This document shows, piece by piece, positions 34,700 to 35,670 of a DNA stretch of 64,000 nt. The notes under the pieces were generated by a model. The model saw nothing but the letters and a program-made list of their open reading frames with translations. It had not been told where the DNA came from and searched no databases. Source of the DNA: Pirellulaceae bacterium (GTDB lineage Bacteria; Planctomycetota; Planctomycetia; Pirellulales; Pirellulaceae); the NCBI GenBank assembly GCA_022448315.1, contig JAKVCA010000016.1, forward strand, positions 118,684 through 182,683. The letters run 5' to 3'. Numbering within the stretch: position 1 is the stretch's first letter; each line of letters opens with the position of its first letter. The position numbers were made by a program, and so were the translations under genes.

Positions 34700-34854
34700 C
34701 CCCTACAAACACCAAATATTCCTTCATTCGACGAGAATAAACTGGCGAATTCGTACTTGGAAACGCCTTTTCCGTCCCTACATTTCCTGCTATCCTCTCC
34801 GGTTTGGCCGGGAATCAAGGGCCATGCGTCTGCAATTGAGGAGCATTCATACCG

Positions 34855-34956
34855 ATGGCAAAGCCACACCGAAAATTGAAAAAAGCCAATCACGGTCGCC
34901 GTCCGGCCAATAGCAAAGCACGCAAATCGAAGCGTAAAAATCTCAAAACGGGCTGA
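34855..34956 (+). CDS. 33-residue very basic microprotein
   Basis: An ATG at 34855 opens a 33-codon frame: MAKPHRKLKKANHGRRPANS followed by KARKSKRKNLKTG and TGA at 34954-34956. Fifteen of 33 residues are Lys, Arg or His-type basic residues and there are no acidic residues. GAGGAG at 34839-34844 lies ten bases upstream, a strong ribosome-binding site. Composition and placement beside trmB suggest an RNA- or ribosome-associated small protein, like short basic ribosomal proteins; I recall similar short sequences in other planctomycetes but cannot confirm this. It is too short for default gene callers. Confidence 0.75.
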   Translation: MAKPHRKLKKANHGRRPANSKARKSKRKNLKTG

Positions 34957-35025
34957 ACGGTTGTTGGCATAGACCAACAATTATCTTCACCTATTGGGCC
35001 GTTATTCCCGGAAGCATAGACGGAA

Positions 35026-35670
35026 ATGGGACGCCGCGCTCTTCCCAAAATCGACGCCTCGATTTCGCTGGATCGTCATCTTTTCGCAGTTGAGGATCTG
35101 GAAGGGATGTTCCAGCCGGATTCGTATTTTCCTGCGGAGCAACCGTTAGTGCTCGAAGTTGGGTGTGGCAAAGGATTGTTCCTGCGTAATTCGGCAGTGG
35201 GCCGACCCAAACTCAACTTTATCGGCATCGAGATCGCTAAAAAATATGCGAGCTACTGCGCCCACCAGTTGGTGCGGCGAGAACTGTCGAATGCCATCAT
35301 GTTTCAAGGTGATGGGCAAAGGTTTGTCAGAGAGCATGCCGTTAGAGGGACTTTTCAAGAGGTCCATGTCTACTTTCCTGATCCTTGGTGGAAAGCTCGC
35401 CACCGTAAACGCCGCGTCTTGAATGAGACCATGTTGAAGGGGATTGAAACCATCCTTTCAGTAGGTGGTGAATTCCATTTTTGGACGGATGTGCAAGAGT
35501 ATTTCGACGTGACCCTTGAACTCATTCCTGAAGTCACCAACCTTCGCGGCCCACTGGATGTTGTTGAGGCAGCGCCCGACCACGATATGGACTACCGCAC
35601 CCACTTCGAAAGGCGGATGCGGCAAGCAGACAAGCCGATCTACCGAAGCCTGTTCCTGAAGCAAGACTGA
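35026..35670 (+). CDS. trmB: tRNA (guanine-N7-)-methyltransferase
   Basis: A 214-residue SAM-dependent enzyme making m7G46 in tRNA. VLEVGCGKGLFLRNSA is SAM motif I, NFIGIEIAKKYASYCA motif II, and VHVYFPDPWWKARHRKRRV the TrmB signature with PDPWxKxRHxKRR. The C-terminal EFHFWTDVQEYFDVTLELI and THFERRMRQADKPIYRS are also TrmB-like. It lies 69 bp after the microprotein gene, and co-transcription is plausible. Length is typical (210-240). Confidence 0.95.
   Translation: MGRRALPKIDASISLDRHLFAVEDLEGMFQPDSYFPAEQPLVLEVGCGKGLFLRNSAVGRPKLNFIGIEIAKKYASYCAHQLVRRELSNAIMFQGDGQRFVREHAVRGTFQEVHVYFPDPWWKARHRKRRVLNETMLKGIETILSVGGEFHFWTDVQEYFDVTLELIPEVTNLRGPLDVVEAAPDHDMDYRTHFERRMRQADKPIYRSLFLKQD

What the first reader, a model, noticed from the sequence alone, without database searches (positions are those of the whole stretch)
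34855..34956. 33-residue highly basic microprotein gene before trmB
A clean ATG-TGA frame with GAGGAG ten bases upstream encodes a peptide with about half basic residues and no acidic residue (KPHRKLKKANHGRR at the start, KARKSKRKN later). Strong ribosome-binding site, extreme composition and its position in front of a tRNA-modification gene suggest an RNA- or ribosome-associated protein missed by standard gene callers. I recall similar short sequences from other planctomycetes but cannot check this.
Basis: partly seen in the sequence, partly recalled or inferred. Interest (0 to 1): 0.6.

Follow-up and report, generated by a model that had tools for sequence, protein, structure and literature searches.

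The report
Planctomycete ribosomal protein bL37 gene
The tiny 33-residue basic gene is real, but it is a known ribosomal protein (bL37, already catalogued for planctomycetes by NCBI) predicted to sit in an RNA pocket next to the ribosome's catalytic centre; it is an ordinary gene with a mildly interesting evolutionary story.

Summary
In detail: 34855-34956(+) is a clean ATG-TGA frame encoding MAKPHRKLKKANHGRRPANSKARKSKRKNLKTG, and it is a genuine conserved gene. It matches the curated NCBIfam model NF047429 (ribo_Plancto_bL37, "50S ribosomal protein bL37") over the model's full length at 65.4 bits against a cut-off of 40, so the protein is already known, not an uncharacterised microprotein. 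It is present in 37 of 40 related genomes and under clear purifying selection. In near relatives it is usually followed by a FabZ-like gene and then trmB; here the FabZ-like gene lies on another contig. Profiles built here independently recover mycobacterial bL37 from solved 50S structures through an ANHGxRP core, and also ciliate mitoribosomal mL102 (E 3e-7). Most likely function: a structural peptide in the 23S pocket of H39-H42, H72 and H89 beside the 5S tip, supporting the peptidyl-transferase centre. Ribosome binding in planctomycetes is inferred, not shown. Two modest extras: the planctomycete form has a basic C-terminal tail that mycobacterial bL37 lacks, and it occurs in a phylum without uL30, which sits awkwardly with the proposal that bL37 arose by splitting uL30.

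The parts
34838..34843 (+). Shine-Dalgarno-like GAGGAG, 11 bases before the ATG
   Evidence: read directly from the sequence; leaders of relatives vary, some with GGAG or GAGGAG
34855..34956 (+). gene for ribosomal protein bL37, 33 aa plus TGA
   Evidence: translation; NF047429 65.4 bits, cut-off 40; orthologues; purifying selection
34885..34905 (+). codons for the ANHGRRP core (residues 11-17); six of the seven residues invariant in the phylum-wide alignment A2
   Evidence: shared with mycobacterial bL37 and ciliate mL102
34906..34953 (+). codons for the basic C-terminal tail (residues 18-33), absent from mycobacterial bL37; predicted helix 20-30
   Evidence: mycobacterial chain ends at RPNS just after the core; AlphaFold2 model, mean pLDDT 82 for residues 21-30
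35026..35670 (+). trmB, tRNA (guanosine(46)-N7)-methyltransferase, downstream neighbour
   Evidence: TIGR00091 130.9 bits, cut-off 112.65; synteny

Best explanation
The gene encodes the planctomycete form of large-subunit ribosomal protein bL37. By homology to the solved mycobacterial and Cutibacterium proteins, the peptide would be threaded into a pocket of 23S rRNA made by H39, H40, the base of H41/H42, H72 and H89, under the tip of 5S rRNA. Its ANHGxRP core and flanking Lys/Arg would neutralise the rRNA backbone and brace H89, a helix of the peptidyl-transferase centre. Shown here: the gene, its conservation, selection on it, and its sequence homology. Inferred: expression, ribosome binding, position and the H89-bracing role. 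The extra basic C-terminal tail probably forms a short helix lying on rRNA next to the core; where it goes is not known.
For: NF047429 full-length match, 65.4 bits against cut-off 40, and a weaker match to the mycobacterial model NF047428. Profiles made here from planctomycete sequences recover solved mycobacterial bL37 chains, 7kgb_v at E 9e-4, and the real segments outscore all 5000 shuffles of the same composition (27.2 bits against a shuffle maximum of 19.6). NF047429 rings in only one of 14 control genomes, the actinobacterium Corynebacterium glutamicum. Present in 37 of 40 genomes. pN 0.11-0.23 against pS 0.58-1.01; entropy by codon position 0.56, 0.41, 1.39 bits. Position of bL37 on the ribosome: PMC5876184, PMC10085706.
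Against: No paper on a planctomycete bL37 was found, so the binding site rests on homology over a core of 13-16 residues. Some planctomycetes (families f21, f22, f23) show no convincing copy, so it is not needed by every planctomycete ribosome. The mycobacterial model NF047428 is not passed (17.7 bits against 30).
Confidence: 0.9

Rival explanations
1. It is a basic nucleic-acid-binding peptide that shares a short motif with bL37 but acts elsewhere, for example in ribosome assembly or in tRNA modification together with TrmB.
For: Conserved linkage with trmB and a FabZ-like gene in near relatives; the core shared with mycobacteria is short.
Against: The match is to the order of residues, not to composition (shuffles). 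The trmB linkage is absent in many relatives while the peptide stays conserved.
Confidence: 0.07
2. It is another short basic ribosomal peptide, bTHX (S31e/Thx), of the small subunit.
For: Similar size and charge; one PDB deposition labels a mycobacterial bL37 chain '30S ribosomal protein THX'.
Against: The NCBIfam scan up to E 10 lists only the two bL37 models and no Thx model. Two Pirellula genomes were reported to lack Thx (PMC3353972).
Confidence: 0.02
3. It is not a gene: a chance open frame, or part of a leader of trmB.
For: The frame is short, a longer antisense frame of 132 codons overlaps it, and no sigma-70-like promoter was found.
Against: Start, length and stop conserved in dozens of genomes, third-position bias, and presence away from trmB.
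Confidence: 0.01

Closest known systems
NF047429 ribo_Plancto_bL37 (NCBIfam equivalog, 50S ribosomal protein bL37)
   Same: Match over positions 1-32 of 32, far above cut-off
   Different: One extra C-terminal Gly in the window copy; nothing else seen
Mycobacterial bL37 (M. smegmatis 5o60_3, M. tuberculosis 7kgb_v; organism names from my own knowledge of these entries)
   Same: KANHGxRP core, short, highly basic
   Different: 24 aa, with about five more residues before the core, ending at RPNS; the planctomycete protein has about 16 mostly basic residues after the core
mL102 of the Tetrahymena mitoribosome (6z1p_AQ)
   Same: NRNARPPKKANHGARPCSSVMRRLKKKYF aligns over positions 2-30 of the planctomycete profile, E 3.1e-7, the C-terminal tail included
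Borrelia uL30 N-terminal extension and Coxiella CLaSP
   Same: Reported to occupy the same pocket as mycobacterial bL37
   Different: CLaSP was described as lacking substantial sequence similarity to bL37; the uL30 extension belongs to a protein not detected in planctomycetes

Membership tests
bL37, planctomycete (NF047429) | Score above the curated cut-off over the whole model | tested here: met
   65.4 bits against 40, model 1-32/32
bL37, planctomycete (NF047429) | Single copy, conserved in relatives | tested here: met
   one match in own genome; 37 of 40 genomes
bL37, mycobacterial (NF047428) | Score above the curated cut-off of that model | tested here: not met
   17.7 bits against 30; only the core aligns. 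It is therefore not filed under the mycobacterial model
bL37 in general | ANHGxRP core shared with solved chains | tested here: met
   beats 5000 shuffles
bL37 in general | Binds the 23S pocket H39/H40/H72/H89 under the 5S tip | not testable with these tools
   needs a planctomycete 50S structure
bTHX | Match to a Thx family model | tested here: not met
   no Thx model among NCBIfam hits up to E 10

The most novel reading that the evidence does not exclude
Planctomycete bL37 and ciliate mitochondrial mL102 are homologues that share both the ANHGxRP core and a basic C-terminal tail. bL37 would then be an older and longer ribosomal protein, shortened in actinobacteria and independent of uL30, whose tail might reach towards the A-site tRNA end as described for mL102.
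Probability: 0.4. Interest if true: 0.45.

Novelty: already known. Interest (0 to 1): 0.2.

Why it matters
As a gene it is a correct catch of a small ribosomal protein that is easy to overlook, already catalogued by NCBI. The papers found here still describe bL37 as actinobacterial or mycobacterial only, so the planctomycete family, its longer form and its occurrence without uL30 bear on the published idea that bL37 and a short uL30 came from one long uL30 (PMC10618245).

Tried and rejected
Pfam gave no family. Single-sequence phmmer against the PDB found only mL102 at E 0.11 and not bL37; profiles were needed. A deeper search of 22 genomes that had no clear copy gave only weak hits, the best at E 0.005 with a stop inside, so I treat the gene there as absent or unrecognisable; the first-look filter scored at most 150 candidates per genome, so absence is not proven. 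A chance frame, a trmB leader and bTHX were considered and rejected. The first shuffle script failed to build its profiles and was redone; the first extraction script ignored strand and was redone. No papers were found on planctomycete bL37 or on a trmB-fabZ linkage. The AlphaFold2 model of the lone peptide is of modest confidence (mean pLDDT 73, pTM 0.32) and was not used for a fold search.

Full report
Observation. The frame at 34855-34956(+) is as described: ATG to TGA, 33 residues, MAKPHRKLKKANHGRRPANSKARKSKRKNLKTG. It has 14 Lys/Arg, two His, no acidic residue and a pI near 12. GAGGAG at 34838-34843 ends 11 bases before the start, a little further than stated.

Identity. NCBIfam holds an equivalog model for this protein, NF047429 ribo_Plancto_bL37. 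The window protein matches all 32 positions at 65.4 bits against a cut-off of 40; the mycobacterial sister model NF047428 is matched only weakly, 17.7 bits against 30. Pfam has no family for it. The gene is therefore already known in kind and name.

Independent check of the homology. I did not rest on the label. A profile of 18 relatives found mL102 of the Tetrahymena mitoribosome (E 1.8e-4) and solved bL37 chains of mycobacteria (7kgb_v, E 9e-4; 5o60_3, E 0.04). A wider profile of 23 planctomycete sequences gave mL102 at 3.1e-7 and 7kgb_v at 9.4e-4; a further bL37 chain, 8crx_V, was matched only at 2.9. Real segments scored 27.2 and 26.3 bits (mycobacteria) and 43.1 bits (mL102) against maxima of 19.6, 19.7 and 15.7 among 5000 shuffles each, so composition alone does not explain the matches.

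Conservation. 37 of 40 genomes, own included, have a strong match. In a phylum-wide draw, 85 of 393 genomes pass the cut-off and 124 match at E 0.01 or better; of 14 control genomes only Corynebacterium glutamicum rings, below the cut-off. Start, length and stop hardly vary. Against 28 relatives pN is 0.11-0.23 and pS 0.58-1.01, the latter close to saturation; mean entropy by codon position is 0.56, 0.41 and 1.39 bits. This is purifying selection on the peptide. Across distant planctomycetes only the start Met and A11 N12 H13 G14 R16 P17 are invariant.

Neighbourhood. Upstream are trpD and a transporter-like gene, downstream trmB. Of 76 named loci with at least 700 bases of downstream sequence, 70 have a FabZ-like gene and 64 have TrmB downstream on the same strand; 60 have both. 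These loci are the closest matches and so are biased to near relatives; in many other loci of the class no TrmB lies within 1.5 kb. In the window the FabZ-like gene (PF07977) is missing between the two, and its best match lies on another contig of the same genome, beside a SecA-like frame. The linkage is real but says little about function.

How it most likely works. In M. smegmatis and C. acnes bL37 lies in a 23S pocket of H39, H40, the H41/H42 joint, H72 and H89, below the 5S tip, and contacts H89 near the peptidyl-transferase centre (PMC5876184; PMC10085706). I infer the same for the planctomycete protein through its core. The planctomycete form differs by a basic tail after the core, predicted as a helix at residues 20-30 with modest confidence.

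Relation to uL30. The Borrelia ribosome paper proposes that bL37 and a short uL30 derive from one long uL30 (PMC10618245). No genome of 386 planctomycetes passes the uL30 cut-off, while 12 of 14 control genomes ring. In the window's genome the S5 and L15 genes overlap by four bases, leaving no uL30 gene at its usual place. Loss of L30 in this superphylum is already reported (PMC7203096). bL37 without uL30 does not disprove the proposal, but it is not what a simple split predicts.

Verdict.

Noticed in passing
PDB chain 6z1p_AQ residues 61-89 (not in the window): Tetrahymena mitoribosomal protein mL102 matches the planctomycete bL37 profile at E 3.1e-7 over core and tail; no paper linking the two was found.
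   Followed up: partly
L142 1480-1520: In the window's genome rpsE and rplO overlap by ATGA with no rpmD between, and uL30 is undetected in 386 planctomycete genomes. Loss in the superphylum is known.
   Followed up: yes
L175 from about 1462 (G000 contig C52): The FabZ-like gene that stands between bL37 and trmB in relatives lies here on another contig, next to a SecA-like frame.
   Followed up: partly
window 34961-34980: Inverted repeat TTGTTGG-CATAGA-CCAACAA between the bL37 gene and trmB, without a following T run; not called as a terminator.
   Followed up: no
L190 (G000 contig C42 98297-98446): The small basic protein family TIGR04137 is present at 83.2 bits. It may be the small protein proposed as an L30 substitute in PMC7203096; this identity is my guess and was not checked.
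   Followed up: no
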